In this document: positions 24,858 through 32,054 of the stretch, piece by piece
How the letters are laid out: every line of letters starts with the position of its first letter
Position numbering within the stretch: the first letter of the stretch is position 1
Source: Thermoanaerobacterales bacterium 50_218
GTDB taxonomy: Bacteria > Bacillota > DSM-12270 > Thermacetogeniales > Thermacetogeniaceae
NCBI GenBank assembly: GCA_001508855.1
Contig: LGFL01000012.1
Span: 1-33,271, forward strand
Direction: 5' to 3'
DNA: 33,271 bases
Position numbers and translations under genes: made by a program
Notes under the pieces: generated by a model
Told to the model about the DNA's origin: nothing
The model's database searches: none
The model's input: only the letters and a program-made list of their open reading frames with translations

Positions 24858-25648
24858 AAAGGCTTTGCCAGTATATCAAGGTTGTTGACTTGGTTTTCGA
24901 AGTAGTCGATGCCCGCTGTCCCTTAAGCTCTCGCAGCCCTCAGATTGAGCAACTAGCACCAGGAAAGAGTCGTCTTCTCGTTCTCAATAAAGCGGATCTT
25001 GCTGATCCGTCAGTGACAGAAAAGTGGCTCTCTTTTTTTCGACAAGCAGGGGAAAAGGCGCTTGCAGTCGATTCTCGAGAAGGAAAGGGGTTCCGCAGGC
25101 TCTCCTTCCTTCTTGAGAATTTTTCCAAGGAAGTAAATGAGAAGCTGAGGAAAAAGGGAAGAAAACCTCGTGAACTCAGGGCTGCGGTTGTAGGGGTTCC
25201 CAATGTTGGCAAATCCACCTTCATTAACAGATTGATTGGGAGAAGGATTGCTTCTGTGGGAAACAGACCGGGGATTACCAAGGGCCCGCAGTGGATCCGG
25301 GTAGGGAAAGTTTTTCTTCTTGACACCCCGGGAATGCTTCCACCACGGTTGGAGAGTGAAGGAGTAATTTTCAAACTGGCAGCAGTTGGGGTGTTGAAAA
25401 TGGAGAATTACGATGTTATGGAAGTGGCGAACAGACTTTTGCAACTCCTTGAGGGTTTTTATCCTGGAGTTGTCGGGAATTACTTCGGAATTACCCCGGG
25501 GGACGATCTTTTTCTGGAACAACTCGCCCTCAAGAAAAAATTTCTCCTTCCTGATGGTGTGCCTGACCAGGACCGGGCCGCTAGGTTTTTGCTCGAACTC
25601 TTTCAGGAAGGGAGATTAGGCGCTTTGACACTGGAAAGACCTTGTTAA
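24854..25648 (+). CDS. rbgA: RbgA (YlqF) ribosome biogenesis GTPase, short N-terminus
   Basis: This 264-residue circularly permuted GTPase has the order G4 (LVLNKADLAD), G1 (GVPNVGKSTFINRL), G2/G3 (GITKGPQW, LLDTPGMLPP) and a C-terminal helical domain. RbgA matures the 50S subunit by helping L16 join. The ATG at 24854 overlaps the lepB stop with GGGTGGGG 8 bases upstream. With this start the protein lacks the family N-terminal WFPGHM-type motif; an in-frame stretch before it (SPGGADQ) only partly resembles it and lies in lepB. Either the gene uses an earlier start inside lepB or the motif has been lost. Confidence 0.92.
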   Translation: MKRLCQYIKVVDLVFEVVDARCPLSSRSPQIEQLAPGKSRLLVLNKADLADPSVTEKWLSFFRQAGEKALAVDSREGKGFRRLSFLLENFSKEVNEKLRKKGRKPRELRAAVVGVPNVGKSTFINRLIGRRIASVGNRPGITKGPQWIRVGKVFLLDTPGMLPPRLESEGVIFKLAAVGVLKMENYDVMEVANRLLQLLEGFYPGVVGNYFGITPGDDLFLEQLALKKKFLLPDGVPDQDRAARFLLELFQEGRLGALTLERPC

Positions 25649-25649
25649 G

Positions 25650-25675
25650 AAAACCCTCAAAGAAGGGTTTTTTAA
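25650..25675 (+). terminator. terminator of the ffh-rbgA operon
   Basis: AAAACCCT (25650-25657) pairs with AGGGTTTT (25664-25671) across a six-base loop, continuing into TT and an AT-rich tract. It is a compact terminator just after rbgA. Confidence 0.8.
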
Positions 25676-25738
25676 TTTTAGGGAGAAGTGAAATTCAGCA
25701 GGAAAAATAAGTTCCAGAGTTGGTCTGTGTGATAAAAA

Positions 25739-26395
25739 ATGCGAACGATAAAATTAGATGAGAAAGAGTGGTTGCGCCTGATAAAACTTCATTTTTTTGA
25801 GCAGGTTCTTTGGAGGGGTGGGGCAGACTTAGTTGCAGGTGTTGATGAAGCTGGGCGGGGTCCCCTTGCTGGCCCCGTTGTTGCTGCTGTGGTTGTTCTT
25901 GATCAGGAACTACTGATCCCCGGTCTCAATGACAGTAAAAAGGTAAACCCAGGGAAAAGAGATCTTTTAGCCCAGGAAATCAAGATGAAAGCTGTGGATT
26001 GGGCAGTAGGGATCGTGTCTCCACGGGACATTGAGGAGTTTAATATTCAAGAAGCCACCTACCAGGCAGTGAGGAAAGCATTAAAACAGCTTTCCGTTGT
26101 CCCTGATCATCTTCTTGTTGACGGGTGGGCGATACCGGGATTAGAGGTGCCTCAGACGCCTTTAGTGAAAGGGGATTGCAGGAGTGCAGCCATCGCTGCA
26201 GCCTCTCTTCTGGCCAAAACAACGAGGGATGAGTTGATGAAGTTTTATGCCAGGTTCTATCCAGAGTATGGTTTTGAAAAACACAAGGGTTACCCCACAA
26301 AGGAACACCTTAAGGCCCTGCAACGTCACGGTCCCTGTCCTCTCCACCGCCGCAACTTCCGTGGAGTCCTCGGTAGTTCGGGGGTAGAGCGGTGA
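25739..26395 (+). CDS. rnhB: ribonuclease HII
   Basis: This 218-residue enzyme has VDEAGRGPLAGPVVAA with the first catalytic Asp and Glu, LLVDGWAIPGL with another Asp, and the IAAASLLAKTTRD motif. It cuts RNA-DNA hybrids and single ribonucleotides. There is no clear Shine-Dalgarno before the ATG at 25739. Its stop overlaps the next start (GTGA). The residue after the VDG motif (Trp) is unusual, where Asn is common, but the catalytic set is intact. Confidence 0.96.
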   Translation: MRTIKLDEKEWLRLIKLHFFEQVLWRGGADLVAGVDEAGRGPLAGPVVAAVVVLDQELLIPGLNDSKKVNPGKRDLLAQEIKMKAVDWAVGIVSPRDIEEFNIQEATYQAVRKALKQLSVVPDHLLVDGWAIPGLEVPQTPLVKGDCRSAAIAAASLLAKTTRDELMKFYARFYPEYGFEKHKGYPTKEHLKALQRHGPCPLHRRNFRGVLGSSGVER

Positions 26396-27540
26396 AGATG
26401 TTTTTGAGGCCCATTTTTTCCTCGAGAGCGGATACCGGTGTCGGGAGTAGTACCCAGGAAGACCTCTTGCACATTAGGGTGCTCCAGGTTGCAGGAAATA
26501 AAGCTATCGTATCGGTCCAGGGCCTGCTTCAGGAAGTGCGCACCGATGTTGAACTGAGACCTGGTCAGGCTTTCTACGTTCGCCAGGAGCAGGGCAAAGG
26601 TGAAGTATTGTGGCGAATCGTCAAAGAAGTCGAGGGGCTGGAATTCTTGTCCCCGGCTTCGGTTCTGCAAAACCTGGGAATTACAGAAAGCCCAGAGAAT
26701 TTGGCAATTCTGGCGGCGCTTCACGATGCTGGTTTGGCCCTTTCCAAGGAAAACTTTTTCCTTGTAAAGCGCTATCTGGCTCAGTTGGGCTCATTTAATT
26801 CGGTAAATCTCTTAGTTTCCCTGACCCTGGCGAGATTGGGGGCTGGCTTTCAGCCTTTTTTGCTGAAGGCCTTATTAGAATTTTTTCAGAAGAAGTTCTC
26901 AGAAAAGCTGCCTCCGGACAAAGCGATCTCTCAGGAAAGCCTTTTGGAAAGATTCGTTGTGCAATTGCAGTCTTCAACAGAACGACTGCGAAATATTCTT
27001 CTGGCTCTTTACCATTACCTTTCTGGAAAATCTGGTGAATCCGGAGAATCTGAGGTTCTTTCAAGGGTTTTCCGTGAAGGATTTCTGAGCCGAGACTTGG
27101 AGTTGCTTGGAGGCCAGATTTTCGCCTGGGCGTATTGCCAGGAACAAGAAGAACTTTTTTACTTTATCCCGTTTTTTGTGTTTGCTGAACATGGTTCTGG
27201 TCATCGGGGAGAGGTTTATCTCTATCCCCCCAGAAAGGGAAAGGAAAAAGATTATTGGAAGCTGGTGTTGGTTTTAGAGACGGGTAATCTTGGCTGGATC
27301 CAGGTGGAACTGGTGATGAGAGGCTCTCTCATCGAAGGTAAGGTTGTTGTTGAAGAAGAAGAGACAAGGTCGCTTTTTGAGGAACACCTCCCGGAACTTT
27401 TACAGTCTTTTCAGGGCACAGGTATCCAGTTCAACTGGCTGGGTTGTGCTCTCGGGAAGGTCAGGAAATTGGCGGTTCAGCCACCTGGAGAAGTTGTTGC
27501 TGGTTTTCGGAAATATCCCCGCGTCAACCTGTTGGTTTGA
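26392..27540 (+). CDS. FliK-like protein (YlqG position)
   Basis: This 382-residue protein has no clear enzyme motif. Its C-terminal third (about 295-365), with GNLGWIQVELVMRGSLIEGK and FEEHLPELLQSF, resembles the FliK hook-length control C-terminal domain, which has an LG-x-v-x-v-x-L strand and an L-x-x-x-L-P-x-L helix. The middle (about 100-220) is helical. In Bacillus the gene between rnhB and the FlhB-like ylqH is ylqG, which matches this position. It starts with GTG overlapping rnhB and ends 9 bases before the FlhB-like gene. A role with that protein in secretion-type switching is inferred; it could be an unrelated protein with a similar tail. Confidence 0.65.
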   Translation: MKMFLRPIFSSRADTGVGSSTQEDLLHIRVLQVAGNKAIVSVQGLLQEVRTDVELRPGQAFYVRQEQGKGEVLWRIVKEVEGLEFLSPASVLQNLGITESPENLAILAALHDAGLALSKENFFLVKRYLAQLGSFNSVNLLVSLTLARLGAGFQPFLLKALLEFFQKKFSEKLPPDKAISQESLLERFVVQLQSSTERLRNILLALYHYLSGKSGESGESEVLSRVFREGFLSRDLELLGGQIFAWAYCQEQEELFYFIPFFVFAEHGSGHRGEVYLYPPRKGKEKDYWKLVLVLETGNLGWIQVELVMRGSLIEGKVVVEEEETRSLFEEHLPELLQSFQGTGIQFNWLGCALGKVRKLAVQPPGEVVAGFRKYPRVNLLV

Positions 27541-27549
27541 GGTGAGTTG

Positions 27550-27837
27550 ATGGAAAGGGACGATCGTGGTTATCAGAAGCTTGCCGTTGCCCTGAGATAC
27601 CGGCAGAACGAAGATAATGCCCCTCGAGTCGTTGCTACGGGCAGAGGTGAGCTTGCCTGGCGCATCATCAGAGAAGCAGAAAAACACGGGATTCCTCTGT
27701 ACGAAGACCCTCAACTGGTTACTCTCCTTTCCAAACTTCCTCTTGGTACAGAGATTCCTCCGGAGCTTTATGAAGCTGTCGCCAAGGTTCTTGCTTTTGT
27801 TTACACTCTTGACCTTCGAAAATCTCGACCGGAGTGA
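27550..27837 (+). CDS. orphan FlhB C-terminal domain protein (YlqH-like)
   Basis: This 95-residue protein matches the cytoplasmic C-terminal domain of FlhB/YscU: LAVALRY, then APRVVATGRGELAWRIIREA and HGIPLYEDPQLVTLL. FlhB cleaves itself at NPTH just before the AVALRY strand; here that position reads GYQK, and there is no membrane part, so the protein is equivalent to the fragment left after cleavage. B. subtilis has the same orphan (ylqH). It follows the FliK-like gene, and FliK acts on this FlhB domain in flagella. I chose ATG 27550 with GAGGTGA upstream. Confidence 0.88.
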   Translation: MERDDRGYQKLAVALRYRQNEDNAPRVVATGRGELAWRIIREAEKHGIPLYEDPQLVTLLSKLPLGTEIPPELYEAVAKVLAFVYTLDLRKSRPE

Positions 27838-27850
27838 GGTAATCGGCAGA

Positions 27851-28207
27851 GTGGCTACGAATCGTCAGATTGGAGAAAAAGGAGAGCAATTGGCCCTTTC
27901 TTTTCTTTCTTCCCAGGGCTACTTGCTCCTTGAGAGGAATTTTCGCTGCAGGCTTGGGGAAATCGACCTGATTATGAAGGACGGAAAAACCGTTGTTTTT
28001 GTAGAGGTCAAATCGAGGTCGAGCAGAAACTGGGGGCTACCTCAAGAAGCGGTTCACCCGAGAAAGCAGGCTAAGATCAGGAGAGTCGCCCAATACTACC
28101 TACTCCTGAAGAAGATCTCCGAGGTGCCTGTCAGATTTGATGTGGTGGCAGTAGATTTTTTTGAGCGAGGAAGGCCTGTTGTTAACCACCTGAAAGGAGT
28201 TTTCTGA
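27851..28207 (+). CDS. YraN/UPF0102 family, endonuclease-like
   Basis: This 118-residue protein has the PD-ExK nuclease core: GEIDLIMKDG (Asp39) and VVFVEVKSRSS (Glu52, Lys54), after the family start RQIGEKGEQLALSFL. The family is widespread, often next to rnhB, and its function is unproven. I chose the GTG at 27851, 13 bases after the FlhB-like gene. In-frame upstream sequence belongs to that gene in another frame. Confidence 0.93.
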   Translation: MATNRQIGEKGEQLALSFLSSQGYLLLERNFRCRLGEIDLIMKDGKTVVFVEVKSRSSRNWGLPQEAVHPRKQAKIRRVAQYYLLLKKISEVPVRFDVVAVDFFERGRPVVNHLKGVF

Positions 28208-28232
28208 GTCGCTGGAAGAAAAAGAATGGTGT

Positions 28233-28260
28233 ATACACGGCCGGAGTCTGTGTATTTTTT
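28233..28260 (+). terminator. terminator after yraN
   Basis: ATACAC (28233-28238) pairs with GTGTAT (28250-28255) and is followed by six T. It ends the rnhB-yraN transcript. Confidence 0.75.
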
Positions 28261-28273
28261 CGAGACCTTGTGC

Positions 28274-28279
28274 TAAAAT
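28274..28279 (+). promoter_or_regulatory. possible -10 box for glcD
   Basis: TAAAAT at 28274-28279 lies between the yraN terminator and the leader hairpins. No good -35 box is seen at 17 bases, so the promoter is doubtful. Confidence 0.3.
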
Positions 28280-28300
28280 GGGTGTGGTTGTTTTCTTGTG

Positions 28301-28371
28301 ACCTCCGTTTTCCGGAGGTTTTCCGCATTCTTGCGGATGCCTTTCCTCTTTTCTAAAATCTTCCGGGAGGT
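28301..28371 (+). promoter_or_regulatory. structured leader of glcD with possible anti-Shine-Dalgarno
   Basis: Two hairpins lie in tandem: ACCTCCG (28301-28307) with CGGAGGT (28313-28319), and TCCGCA (28322-28327) with TGCGGA (28332-28337). The same ACCTCC could pair instead with GGAGGT (28366-28371), the glcD ribosome site. The two pairings exclude each other, so the leader could switch translation. The first hairpin followed by TTT could also act as a weak terminator. Confidence 0.4.
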
Positions 28372-28377
28372 TTGGTG

Positions 28378-29757
28378 ATGTTACAGTCTTCAGTAATCGA
28401 GGAAATCAAAAGAATCGTGGGAAAGGAGCACGTTTACACATCTCTTGAGGAAAGAATATGCTACGGTTATGACAGCACACCTGAAGCCTTTTTCCCCGAT
28501 CTTGTTGTGCGACCGGCAACTACTGAAGAAATCCAAAAAATAGTCAAATTGGCTAACCACCATTTGTTCCCGATTATTCCCAGAGGTGCAGGGACTGGGT
28601 TGAGCGGTGGTTCTGTTCCCGTCAAAGGTGGTGTTGTTCTCGACTTAACGCGCATGAATAAGATTCTGGAAATAGATGAAGAGAACCTGGTTGCCGTCGT
28701 CGAGCCTGGAGTGATTACTTATGAGTTGCAGCAGGAAGTGGAAAAGCGAGGACTCTTTTACCCCCCGGACCCGGCAAGTTTGAAGACATCGACTATTGGA
28801 GGAAATGTTGCTGAGTGTGCCGGGGGCCCGCGCGCCTTTAAATATGGGGTCACGAGAGATTATGTGCTCGGGTTGGAAGTGGTTACCCCGACCGGGGAGC
28901 TTCTGAAGGTGGGAGGTAAAACCGTCAAAAGTGTTACCGGATATGACCTCATCCGCCTTTACACCGGTTCTGAAGGCACACTTGGCATTATAACCAAGAT
29001 CATTTTGCGTCTTCTGCCCAAGCCCGAGGCTAAAAAAACATTGATGGCGGTTTACCCCAGTCTCGATGACGCTGCTCACACCGTCACCATGATCATCAAA
29101 AAAGGAATTATTCCTGCTACTCTTGAGTTGATGGACGACCTTACGATCAGGTGTGTGGAAAATTACCTCCATATGGGACTCCCCCTTGATGCGGAAGCAA
29201 TTCTTATTATGGAAGTTGATGGTCCTGCTGAACTTGTAGAGAAACAAGCGGTGCAAGTTGCCGAACTCTGCCGCGAAAACGGGGCACGTGAGGTGAAAAT
29301 CGCCGCGGATGAAAAGGATCGCGATGAGATCTGGAGAGCCCGTCGGGCTGTTTCTGCTGCTGTCGTCCAGATTAAGCCCACTAAGATAAGCGAAGATATT
29401 GCGGTTCCCCGCAGCCAGATCCCCAAAATGGTGAGACGACTGAAGGAAATTGCCGCCAGGTATGACCTCAATCTGGTCATTTTTGGTCATGCTGGTGATG
29501 GTAATCTGCATCCTAACATTCTCTGCGACCAGAACGATGCCGAGGAAATGGAAAGGGTTAGGAAGGCAATAGCAGAGTTGTTTAAAGCAGCGGTAGAACT
29601 TGGTGGGACCCTAACCGGGGAACACGGAATCGGCACGATGAAGGCTCCTTACCTGAAGTACGAAACAGGAGATGTCGGCTATCAGGTGATGAAGGCGATC
29701 AAGAAGGCCCTTGATCCTAACAACATCCTTAATCCTGGAAAAATCTTTTTGGAGTGA
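28378..29757 (+). CDS. glcD: FAD-linked glycolate/D-lactate oxidase subunit GlcD-type
   Basis: This 459-residue protein has the PCMH-type FAD-binding domain (IIPRGAGTGLSGGSVPV, DPASLKTSTIGGNVAECAGG, YTGSEGTLGIITKI) and a C-terminal oxidase domain with FGHAGDGNLHPNILC and GTLTGEHGIGTMK. Such subunits oxidise a 2-hydroxy acid, glycolate or D-lactate, and pass electrons to the iron-sulfur partner encoded next. I chose ATG 28378, 7 bases after GGGAGG; GTG 28375 and TTG 28372 are alternatives. Electron-transfer flavoprotein genes are not adjacent. Substrate cannot be settled from sequence. Confidence 0.93.
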   Translation: MLQSSVIEEIKRIVGKEHVYTSLEERICYGYDSTPEAFFPDLVVRPATTEEIQKIVKLANHHLFPIIPRGAGTGLSGGSVPVKGGVVLDLTRMNKILEIDEENLVAVVEPGVITYELQQEVEKRGLFYPPDPASLKTSTIGGNVAECAGGPRAFKYGVTRDYVLGLEVVTPTGELLKVGGKTVKSVTGYDLIRLYTGSEGTLGIITKIILRLLPKPEAKKTLMAVYPSLDDAAHTVTMIIKKGIIPATLELMDDLTIRCVENYLHMGLPLDAEAILIMEVDGPAELVEKQAVQVAELCRENGAREVKIAADEKDRDEIWRARRAVSAAVVQIKPTKISEDIAVPRSQIPKMVRRLKEIAARYDLNLVIFGHAGDGNLHPNILCDQNDAEEMERVRKAIAELFKAAVELGGTLTGEHGIGTMKAPYLKYETGDVGYQVMKAIKKALDPNNILNPGKIFLE

Positions 29758-29765
29758 AGAGAACA

Positions 29766-31025
29766 ATGATCAAAGTAGAAACAGTGAAAACTTATCTCGA
29801 CCGGTGCAGCAAATGTGGTGGTTGTCAGGCTGTTTGTCCCCTTTACGGGGAAACGATGGCCGAACCACTGGTGGCCCGTGGTAAACTCTTTCTGATAAAA
29901 AACCATATCGAGGGGAAGCTGGAGCTTTCTCCAAAGATGAAAGAACTGATGAGTTTATGTTTGTTGTGTAAGGCGTGTATGGAGAATTGCCCCAACAAAA
30001 TTCCGGTTGATCAGCTGGTGCTCTGGGCGCGTCAGAAGATCGCTCAAGAAAAAGGCATTTCTTTTGTCAAGAAGAACATTTTTCAGCACCTGCTTAAGAA
30101 CAATGGCCGCCTCACTATTGCTGCTAGGTTGGGTTATTTTTACCAGCACAGCGGTTTGCAGTGGCTGGTGCGGAAGTCGAGGTTATTGGAGCTGTTTGGA
30201 GACCTTGCCAAAAAGGAAAGCTTGCTGCCTGAAATGGCGAAGGTTCCTTTTCGGAACCAGGTTCCGAGGTTGCTTCCGGTCTCCCGGCCGCAAAAGCGGG
30301 TTGCCTATTTTACCGGCTGCCTTACAAATTTTGTCTTCCCTGATATTGGTTATGCGGTGATCAATGTTCTTCGGAATAACGGAGTCGAGGTTGTAATTCC
30401 TGAGCAGTGGTGCTGCGGTATTCCTGCGCTCGCCAGTGGAGATGAAGAAACTGCGGTAGACCTCGCCAGGAAAAATGTTAAGGTTTTCCAAAGAGAAAAT
30501 GTCGATGCCATCATTACGGATTGCGCTTCTTGTGGCAGCACTCTTAAGGAATATGCCGAACTCCTGGAAACACCAGAGGCGCGTTCCTTTGCTGAGAAGG
30601 TCCTCGACTTCAGCCAACTGCTTGCTGATGTTGTTGGCTTTCAGCCAGGAGAAGAGGAACTTTCGGGTTTGGTTGTTACTTACCACGACCCCTGCCATTT
30701 GCGAAGAGGGATGGGGATCAGTGAGGCGCCCCGTTCTCTGATCAAGGCAGTTCCTGGGGTTACCTTTAAGGAAATGAAGGAATCTGACCGTTGTTGTGGT
30801 GCTGCTGGTTCTTTCAACCTTACCTATTATGAGCTGGCTGTAAGCATTGGTCGCCGAAAAGCCAAAAACGTTCAAGATACAGGTGCTAATGTGCTGTTAA
30901 CTGCGTGCCCTTCCTGTATCATGCAACTGCGCCACGTTCTCCAATTGGAAGGCTCGGATGTGCAGGTTCTTCATCTTGCTCAACTGTTAGATAAAACCTA
31001 TTCAAATGCGGAGAAAAAGTCTTAA
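29766..31025 (+). CDS. glcF: iron-sulfur subunit GlcF-type with two CCG domains
   Basis: This 419-residue protein has two 4Fe-4S motifs, CSKCGGCQAVCP and CLLCKACMENCP, followed by two cysteine-rich CCG domains: YFTGCLTNFVFP with PEQWCCGIPALASGD, and YHDPCHLRRGMG with SDRCCGAAGSF. This is the GlcF/LldE-type partner that relays electrons to the membrane quinone pool or a heterodisulfide-type acceptor. An ATG at 29766 is preferred; a GTG at 29754 overlaps the glcD stop but has no proper ribosome site. It is clearly co-expressed with glcD. Confidence 0.93.
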   Translation: MIKVETVKTYLDRCSKCGGCQAVCPLYGETMAEPLVARGKLFLIKNHIEGKLELSPKMKELMSLCLLCKACMENCPNKIPVDQLVLWARQKIAQEKGISFVKKNIFQHLLKNNGRLTIAARLGYFYQHSGLQWLVRKSRLLELFGDLAKKESLLPEMAKVPFRNQVPRLLPVSRPQKRVAYFTGCLTNFVFPDIGYAVINVLRNNGVEVVIPEQWCCGIPALASGDEETAVDLARKNVKVFQRENVDAIITDCASCGSTLKEYAELLETPEARSFAEKVLDFSQLLADVVGFQPGEEELSGLVVTYHDPCHLRRGMGISEAPRSLIKAVPGVTFKEMKESDRCCGAAGSFNLTYYELAVSIGRRKAKNVQDTGANVLLTACPSCIMQLRHVLQLEGSDVQVLHLAQLLDKTYSNAEKKS

Positions 31026-31685: not shown

Positions 31686-31751
31686 AAAGCCCCTTCCTTT
31701 TCCATAATAAAACCTGATGTAATGAAAAAAATATGTTTAGGAGGGGGTAAT

Positions 31752-32054
31752 ATGTTTGATATGCACCCGGGTTTTTCAATTTCTCCAGTTCCCAAGCGTG
31801 TAGGTGACAAGGTCAAGATCAAATATCACGGCCTGCTGGCACAATCAGGAGCCGATCAGGTCTGGTTACATACAGGCTATGGAAAAGGGCCCTGGGAGGA
31901 TATTTACGATTACAAGATGAAGAGAGAAGGGAACGAGTGGGAACAAACCGTAGAAATGAAAAGAGAGGGTTATTTCAATTTCTGTTTTAAAGATAGTGCT
32001 GATAACTGGGATAACAACAATGGTCTCAACTGGAGCTACAGGATCAGCAAATAG
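31752..32054 (+). CDS. stand-alone CBM25/CBM53-like starch-binding domain protein
   Basis: This 100-residue protein is nearly all one carbohydrate-binding module: KVKIKYHGLLAQSGADQVWL, GPWEDIYDYKM, EGYFNFCFKDSADNWDNNNG and NWSYRI. CBM25/53 modules bind alpha-glucan, normally attached to amylases or starch synthases; here there is no enzyme, signal peptide or membrane segment, so it is probably cytoplasmic and may bind glycogen-like polymer. AGGAGGGGG just before ATG 31752 is a strong ribosome site; an ATG at 31722 lacks one. It ends at a very stable terminator. Confidence 0.85.
   Translation: MFDMHPGFSISPVPKRVGDKVKIKYHGLLAQSGADQVWLHTGYGKGPWEDIYDYKMKREGNEWEQTVEMKREGYFNFCFKDSADNWDNNNGLNWSYRISK

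What the first reader, a model, noticed from the sequence alone, without database searches (positions are those of the whole stretch)
26392..27837. FliK-like and orphan FlhB C-domain gene pair outside a flagellar cluster
The pair joins a protein with a FliK-like tail and a soluble FlhB C-terminal domain whose NPTH cleavage site is replaced by GYQK. In flagella FliK tells FlhB to change export specificity, so a soluble pair could modulate the flagellar or another export system, perhaps by decoy. The linkage to rnhB is conserved in Bacillus (ylqG-ylqH), but the function is unknown.
Basis: partly seen in the sequence, partly recalled or inferred. Interest (0 to 1): 0.5.

Follow-up and report, generated by a model that had tools for sequence, protein, structure and literature searches.

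The report
Stand-alone flagellar export switch pair
Next to a housekeeping gene lie two small genes that resemble the two halves of the switch telling a growing flagellum to stop building its hook and start its filament; the same pair recurs in many bacterial phyla, often beside flagellar genes, so it is probably a real but little-studied part of flagellum assembly.

Summary
ORF 26392-27540 (YlqG-like) passes Pfam's cut-off for the FliK switch domain; ORF 27550-27837 (YlqH-like) is a membrane-free FlhB C-terminal domain with GYQK in place of NPTH. The pair is not local: in 116 of 128 orphan-FlhB loci from many phyla a YlqG relative is adjacent, in either order. 'Outside a flagellar cluster' is true here but not in general: 18 of 80 named loci have rod/ring genes (flgF/flgG, flgA, flgH, flgI types) just downstream, and in three genomes of this phylum the pair precedes flgB-flgC-fliE. 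Orphans group apart from true FlhB, lack NPTH (0 of 129), yet keep the early-substrate pocket. YlqG does not align to the FliK ruler half but keeps the switch domain and a C-terminal motif at the place of the five residues needed for switching in Salmonella. Best reading: a trans-acting switch module, YlqH a free, replaceable FlhB 'lock' and YlqG its non-ruler FliK-type partner. The flagellar link is well supported; the mechanism is inferred. Free FlhB C-domains were known before (FlhX/HP1575, TIGR00789).

The parts
25739..26395 (+). rnhB (ribonuclease HII, name by eye), upstream gene, overlapping the GTG start of the next ORF by 4 nt
   Evidence: ORF list, sequence; no promoter-like site found in 25600-28400, 1.5 expected in shuffles
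26392..27540 (+). YlqG-like protein, 382 aa (GTG start; ATG at 26398 also possible)
   Evidence: full-length family HMM
26464..26628 (+). N-terminal beta-barrel of YlqG (residues 25-79), OB/SH3-like
   Evidence: AlphaFold2 model, pLDDT mostly above 80 there; similar barrels (Z about 5)
27154..27453 (+). T3S4 / FliK substrate-specificity-switch domain of YlqG (residues 255-354)
   Evidence: PF02120, AlphaFold2, Foldseek first two hits PscP SS domain 5cuk and FliK C-domain 2rrl (E 0.022 and 0.029), VIA Z 5.8 to 5cuk
27523..27537 (+). last five residues VNLLV, a hydrophobic-[D/N]-x-x-[V/I]-type C-terminal motif shared with true FliK (own FliK ends INYLV)
27550..27837 (+). YlqH-like protein, 95 aa (ATG; TTG at 27547 possible), free FlhB C-terminal domain
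27568..27579 (+). GYQK, in place of the FlhB autocleavage motif NPTH (269-272)
   Evidence: alignment; 0 of 129 orphans have NPT[HEN]
27619..27624 (+). A24-P25, equivalent to FlhB A286-P287 of the early-substrate pocket
   Evidence: numbering; same residue in 119 and 129 of 129 orphans; pocket residues from PMC13344023
27781..27792 (+). A78 to L81, equivalent to FlhB A341 to L344; A341 and L344 are pocket residues
   Evidence: numbering; same residue in 127 and 117 of 129 orphans
27851..28207 (+). yraN-like (UPF0102) downstream gene, probable end of the rnhB-ylqG-ylqH-yraN run
   Evidence: ORF; the name is recalled and by eye, the start codon is my choice; YraN-like neighbours

Best explanation
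The two genes encode a conserved accessory module of the flagellar type III exporter: YlqH is a stand-alone copy of the removable C-terminal lock of FlhB (FlhB-CCD), and YlqG is a FliK-type switch protein without the known ruler half. Proposed action: YlqH docks in trans at the FlhB site of the export gate, where CCD provides the early-substrate pocket and holds the gate in rod/hook mode; it is made without cleavage, so it can be loaded or replaced. YlqG binds YlqH (or FlhB-CCD) through its T3S4 domain and five-residue tail and loads, holds or ejects it, independently of hook length. This would guard or reset the early state, most likely during rod and hook building. Shown here: homology, pairing, co-occurrence with FlhB, rod/ring gene neighbourhood in part of the loci, kept pocket, lost cleavage site, kept tail motif. 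Inferred: direct binding, docking in trans in these bacteria, and the direction of the effect.
For: Co-occurrence: orphan in 47 of 64 genomes with FlhB, 0 of 12 without (counted by me from frame lengths; Fisher p 1.7e-6, no correction for kinship). Pairing: a second Flg_hook protein in 29 of the 47 and in 0 of the 17 genomes with FlhB but no orphan (p 5e-6); adjacent YlqG in 116 of 128 loci, 112 in order G-H and 4 in order H-G. Neighbourhood: 32 of 80 named loci have flagellar-type neighbours, 18 of them rod/ring genes (one representative of each cluster identified by Pfam); H-G-flgB-flgC-fliE in G006, G035 and G075. Tail: loose motif in 112 of 125 partner ORFs, 45 of 47 true FliKs, 25 of 738 control frames (the motif was defined after seeing the tails). 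Pocket kept, NPTH absent. Literature: FlhB-CCD holds early mode, docks early substrates and is ejected by FliK, whose last five residues and folded 301-350 region are needed (PMC13344023; PMC10965912). H. pylori HP1575 'acts as a spare part' when FlhB-CC is deleted (title only).
Against: No interaction was shown: the read-through G-H model has pTM 0.48 and places the tail with low confidence. The pocket may be kept for fold reasons: it is as conserved in FlhB (41, 44, 43 and 41 of 44). 17 of 64 FlhB-bearing genomes lack the orphan, so it is dispensable. Five of 30 genomes from other phyla have the orphan but no full FlhB, four of these with no FlhA either; they are MAG records whose completeness is not told, and 18 of 20 orphan-bearing genomes in the family of two of them do have full FlhB. 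37 of 80 named loci show neither flagellar nor rnhB-type neighbours. One YlqG with a Flg_hook match (G027) ends ERRFM, without the motif. D or N at position -4 is not matched between FliK and YlqG of one genome (FliK/YlqG: 18 D/D, 12 N/D, 5 D/N, 3 N/N, 5 other/D). In this genome the pair follows a housekeeping gene, so its expression need not follow flagellar genes.
Confidence: 0.5

Rival explanations
1. Cytoplasmic decoy: YlqH mimics FlhB-CCD and soaks up FliK switch domains or early substrates, delaying the switch; YlqG competes with FliK for it.
For: YlqH is small and looks soluble: by a crude 19-residue hydropathy mean none of 129 orphans exceeds 1.80. It keeps the early-substrate pocket and lacks NPTH.
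Against: A decoy does not need strict pairing with its own FliK-type partner (116 of 128); the reported spare-part activity of HP1575 (title) is replacement, not titration.
Confidence: 0.2
2. YlqG is a second, secreted ruler or timer (for the rod, for instance) and YlqH its private switch target or chaperone.
For: Partner ORFs vary from 81 to 838 aa (median 390 of 120; some short ones are not YlqG), as rulers do; neighbours in part of the loci are rod genes.
Against: The YlqG N-terminus is modelled as a folded barrel plus helices, unlike an extended ruler, and true FliKs do not align to it.
Confidence: 0.12
3. YlqH is an early-substrate carrier and YlqG its release factor: together they bring rod and hook subunits to the gate.
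For: Residues equivalent to A286, P287, A341 and L344 are kept; rod-gene neighbourhood in part of the loci.
Against: No substrate binding tested; does not by itself explain the FliK-type tail motif.
Confidence: 0.15
4. Non-flagellar role tied to rnhB/rbgA housekeeping genes.
For: Position in this window, in 11 of 80 named loci and 17 of 48 phylum loci; OB-like barrel in YlqG; five MAGs with the orphan but no full FlhB.
Against: 0 of 12 genomes without FlhB in the phylum sample have it; elsewhere it sits in flagellar clusters.
Confidence: 0.03

Closest known systems
FlhX / H. pylori HP1575 ('spare part' FlhB C-terminal homologue) and NCBIfam TIGR00789 flhB_rel
   Same: Short FlhB C-domain encoded apart from FlhB; PMC9321776 mentions 'flhX-fliK' together outside the main cluster of Nitratiruptor (passage).
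   Different: The window protein scores 102.8 bits, under the TIGR00789 cut-off of 117.35, and 0 of 76 genomes of the phylum pass it. HP1575 itself was not compared here and the spare-part work was seen only as a reference title.
FliK, flagellar hook-length control protein
   Same: T3S4 switch domain (PF02120) and a C-terminal five-residue motif.
   Different: N-terminal barrel and helices in place of the FliK ruler half; the significant alignments of 14 true FliKs to the YlqG model start at position 55 or later, in 10 of 14 at 207 or later.
FlhB (export gate switch protein)
   Same: C-terminal cytoplasmic domain, early-substrate pocket, residues equivalent to G293 and A298.
   Different: No membrane part, no NPTH, a one-residue gap after window position 62 in the orphans against FlhB, and a changed helix where FlhB mostly has P-L-A-R-x-L-Y; separate branch.
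Fluke/Flk and SwrB (guard or activator of early secretion)
   Same: Proposed role: keep the exporter in early mode (PMC13344023). A gene of a cluster whose scanned member matches DUF6115, perhaps SwrB-like (recalled), lies upstream of YlqG in 8 of 80 loci.
   Different: Functional analogy only; no sequence comparison was made.

Membership tests
FlhB | C-terminal cytoplasmic domain homologous to FlhB-CC | tested here: met
   PF01312 79.9 bits, positions 261-335; PDB FlhB chains
FlhB | N-terminal membrane domain | tested here: not met
   95-aa ORF, match begins at profile position 261
FlhB | NPTH autocleavage motif | tested here: not met
   GYQK; NPT[HEN] in 0 of 129 orphans
FlhX / TIGR00789-type FlhB C-domain orphan | Short separate protein homologous to the FlhB C-terminus, in a genome that also has FlhB | tested here: met
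FlhX / TIGR00789-type FlhB C-domain orphan | Score above the TIGR00789 curated cut-off | tested here: not met
   102.8 against 117.35 bits; 0 of 76 genomes of the phylum pass. So it is called a relative, not filed as that equivalog
FlhX / TIGR00789-type FlhB C-domain orphan | Separate from FlhB in a tree | tested here: met
   one branch, 100/96; weaker, 86/71, with 17 FlhB of other phyla
FlhX / TIGR00789-type FlhB C-domain orphan | Can replace deleted FlhB-CC in trans | not testable with these tools
   reported for HP1575 (title only)
FliK | T3S4 / Flg_hook switch domain | tested here: met
   PF02120 39.7 bits, cut-off 29.8; PscP SS and FliK C-domain are the first Foldseek hits, E 0.022 and 0.029, probability 1.00, none at E 0.001 or better
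FliK | C-terminal five-residue motif | tested here: met
   VNLLV; loose motif in 112 of 125 partner ORFs, 45 of 47 FliKs, 25 of 738 control frames
FliK | N-terminal secreted ruler half | tested here: not met
   No significant alignment of 14 FliKs to the first 54 model positions; folded barrel modelled instead. Secretion itself not tested
FliK | Controls hook length | not testable with these tools
   needs deletion and hook measurement

The most novel reading that the evidence does not exclude
Many bacteria carry a second, trans-acting specificity switch for the flagellar exporter: YlqH is a free lock that can be reloaded onto FlhB after FliK has thrown out the original one, and YlqG is a FliK without a ruler that places or removes it. 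The early-to-late switch, described as irreversible in Salmonella, would then be guarded or resettable in the many lineages that have the pair.
Probability: 0.3. Interest if true: 0.75.

Novelty: new variant of a known kind. Interest (0 to 1): 0.5.

Why it matters
The FlhB/FliK switch papers seen here are on Salmonella; the free FlhB C-domain and its YlqG partner are spread over many phyla but I found no study of the pair (searches named in Tried and rejected). If it works as proposed, a widespread part of the flagellar exporter has been overlooked, and the 2026 lock-ejection model (PMC13344023) can be tested with a natural, separately encoded lock.

Tried and rejected
Decoy versus lock could not be separated by sequence. 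Matched choice of D or N at the -4 position between FliK and YlqG of one genome: none seen. The read-through G-H AlphaFold2 model (mean pLDDT 71.1, pTM 0.48; a weak strand at 380-384, block means 33 and 54 there) is inconclusive; it has no free YlqG C-terminus and no control. The SUI1/eIF1 hits of the YlqG N-terminus (18.7 bits against a cut-off of 143.9; E 0.31) were dropped; the OB-like resemblance has Z about 5, a common fold, and no function is drawn from it. Papers: ylqG only as a mutation in a table, ylqH only as a gene name, FlhX as a listed component in two papers, HP1575 in a table and in reference lists. Searches listed no study of the pair. The Wand 2006 paper is not held.

Rows dropped or doubtful: my FlhB parse kept 27 of 31 loci (the window genome's own FlhB, L001, is among the 4 lost) and 17 of 24, so 'NPTH in 27 of 27 and 17 of 17' is biased by that selection and is not used as evidence. 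One orphan (L185) branches next to FlhB at 83/85. For the tail comparison I used 43 of 47 genomes: G008, G017 and G051 have no recognised YlqG, and G027 was left out although its YlqG ends ERRFM, without the motif; for G039 and G046 one of two copies was used. The motif was defined after seeing the tails; its controls are open frames of 200 aa or more in the named loci, not curated genes. Among the 110 partners that match the switch HMM, -4 is D in 62, N in 33, S in 8 and other in 7; in the wider alignment D is no longer nearly invariant. 4 of 128 loci had no usable neighbour ORF. The 47-genome orphan count is mine from the open-frame lengths. Twelve of 128 loci lack a recognised YlqG; in L180 and L189 the locus begins within 500 nt of the orphan. 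The 116 count uses HMMs trained partly on the same proteins; the independent Pfam count is 99 of 125 (E up to 0.01, not the curated cut-off). G069 has a YlqG N-terminus in a 211-aa frame but no orphan; not followed.
Full report
What is there. Two ORFs in the same frame and direction follow rnhB: 26392-27540 (382 aa, overlapping rnhB by 4 nt if the GTG is used) and 27550-27837 (95 aa), then a yraN-like gene (rnhB and yraN named by eye). The first passes the Pfam cut-off for Flg_hook, the FliK switch domain, over residues 284-348 (39.7 against 29.8 bits). The second is the last quarter of FlhB (79.9 bits, profile 261-335), with GYQK where FlhB has NPTH. The assembly has a full-length FlhB and another FliK together on contig C90 and two Flagellin_N matches, so this is a second set of switch-type proteins.

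Not chance. In 76 genomes of the phylum searched with TIGR00789, 64 have a match. From the open-frame lengths I count 47 genomes with a free short copy; stretches around 48 copies in 46 of these genomes were fetched besides the window. Of the 47, 46 also show a match in a longer FlhB-type frame (in G071 only a 252-aa frame); in the exception, G023, the PF01312 search gives a weaker match (3.2e-50) and contig C36 ends near where flhB would be expected (my inference). Taking G023 as having FlhB, the orphan occurs in 47 of 64 genomes with FlhB and 0 of 12 without (Fisher p 1.7e-6, not corrected for kinship). A second Flg_hook protein appears in 29 of the 47 and in 0 of the 17 genomes with FlhB but no orphan (p 5e-6).

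The pair across bacteria. With the 48 phylum loci this makes 128. In 116 of them a YlqG relative is adjacent, 112 upstream and 4 downstream of the orphan; 12 have none. By Pfam alone 99 of 125 neighbour C-terminal halves, window included, match Flg_hook at E up to 0.01. A model grown from the window protein matches most partners over nearly all of its 335 positions, whereas the significant alignments of 14 true FliKs start at position 207 or later in 10 and at 55 to 111 in 4. YlqG is thus a family of its own that shares the switch domain with FliK.

Neighbourhood. By BLAST clusters, 32 of 80 named loci have flagellar-type neighbours within about 5 kb, 11 have the rnhB/rbgA/rplS/lepB/yraN set, none both, 37 neither. 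One representative of each flagellar cluster was identified by Pfam; the FliA and FlhG labels are mine, on sigma-70 and MinD/ParA-type matches. Eighteen of the 32 have rod/ring-type genes downstream; the fullest order, in Thermodesulfobacteriota and others, reads FlhG, FliA, (DUF6115), YlqG, YlqH, FlgF/FlgG, FlgA, FlgH, FlgI, FlgJ. The other 14 show only FliA-, FlhG- or FliS-type neighbours. In G006, G035 and G075 of the window's phylum the order is YlqH, YlqG, then rod genes of FlgB and FlgC type and FliE, with flagellin upstream in G035 (Pfam; the FlgB of G006 by tblastn only). Of the 48 phylum loci 5 have flagellar and 17 rnhB-type neighbours, 26 neither, by single-sequence tblastn, which undercounts. 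Of 30 genomes from the named loci that I chose, 24 have full FlhB, one (G204) a broken one, five none; of those five, four show no FlhA and one a fragment. All five are MAG records; in the family of two of them 18 of 20 orphan-bearing genomes have full FlhB. These exceptions may be incomplete assemblies but were not resolved.

What is kept and what is lost. Orphans and FlhB C-domains are split by one branch (100/96 for 128 against 27; 86/71 and 89% of bootstrap trees for 39 against 24 with FlhB of other phyla added); few columns, so rough. None of 129 orphans has NPT[HEN]. The orphans show a one-residue gap after window position 62 against FlhB. The early-substrate pocket named in PMC13344023 (A286, P287, A341, L344; section 12) is kept in 119, 129, 127 and 117 of 129 orphans, and in 41, 44, 43 and 41 of 44 FlhBs. 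In 43 YlqG proteins of the phylum position -4 from the end is D in 35 and N in 8 (G027, ending ERRFM, and three genomes without a recognised YlqG are not in the 43). A loose motif, hydrophobic-[DNSE]-x-x-[VILAGTSM]-end, is in 112 of 125 partner ORFs, 45 of 47 true FliKs and 25 of 738 control frames; a strict form in 89, 36 and 5. The window YlqG ends VNLLV, its genome's FliK INYLV. In Salmonella the last five FliK residues and residues 301-350 are needed for switching (PMC10965912 passage; PMC13344023 section 14).

Structure. AlphaFold2 gives YlqG a beta-barrel (25-79), helices (88-252) and a confident switch domain (255-354), then a disordered tail (pLDDT 74.6, pTM 0.54). Foldseek's first two hits are the PscP substrate-specificity domain and the FliK C-domain (E 0.022 and 0.029, probability 1.00; no match at E 0.001 or better); the second aligner puts PscP first at Z 5.8, modest. 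The barrel resembles OB/SH3-like domains at Z about 5, which says little. A joined G-H model did not settle an interface.

Mechanism. PMC13344023 (abstract, sections 7, 12, 14 and 15 read) reports that FlhB-CCD keeps the exporter in early mode, that without it early export stops and late export is locked on, and that FliK ejects it. YlqH is such a domain made separately, without the cleavage site and with the pocket; YlqG resembles the ejecting half of FliK without the known ruler part. The simplest joint role is to supply, hold or remove a lock in trans. The H. pylori homologue HP1575 is titled a spare part that permits export when FlhB-CC is deleted (reference title only). Rod and ring neighbours suggest the time of action is rod and hook building. 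Binding, docking and direction are inferred. Decoy, carrier and second-ruler readings remain open.

Novelty. Free FlhB C-domains are known (FlhX, TIGR00789), and PMC9321776 mentions flhX-fliK together in Nitratiruptor (passage). I found no study of YlqG or of the pair as a unit; most subscription papers are not in that library.

Noticed in passing
L088/L089 and L094/L095 (genomes G039, G046): These two genomes carry two YlqG-YlqH pairs each; one lies beside a flagellin gene, the other beside rnhB-type genes.
   Followed up: partly
L205:4202-4927 and 7 other named loci: A gene of one BLAST cluster, whose scanned member matches DUF6115 and may be SwrB-like (recalled), sits between FliA-type and YlqG genes in eight loci.
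   Followed up: partly
window 31722-32054: A small stand-alone protein that by eye resembles a starch-type carbohydrate-binding module (recalled, no search run).
   Followed up: no
window 28372-31025: Two ORFs that look like a glycolate-oxidase-type FAD subunit and an iron-sulphur subunit (by eye).
   Followed up: no
G241:C11:58628-59634: An flhB-like stretch in a genome of the Sulfurihydrogenibium family, broken by several stops.
   Followed up: no
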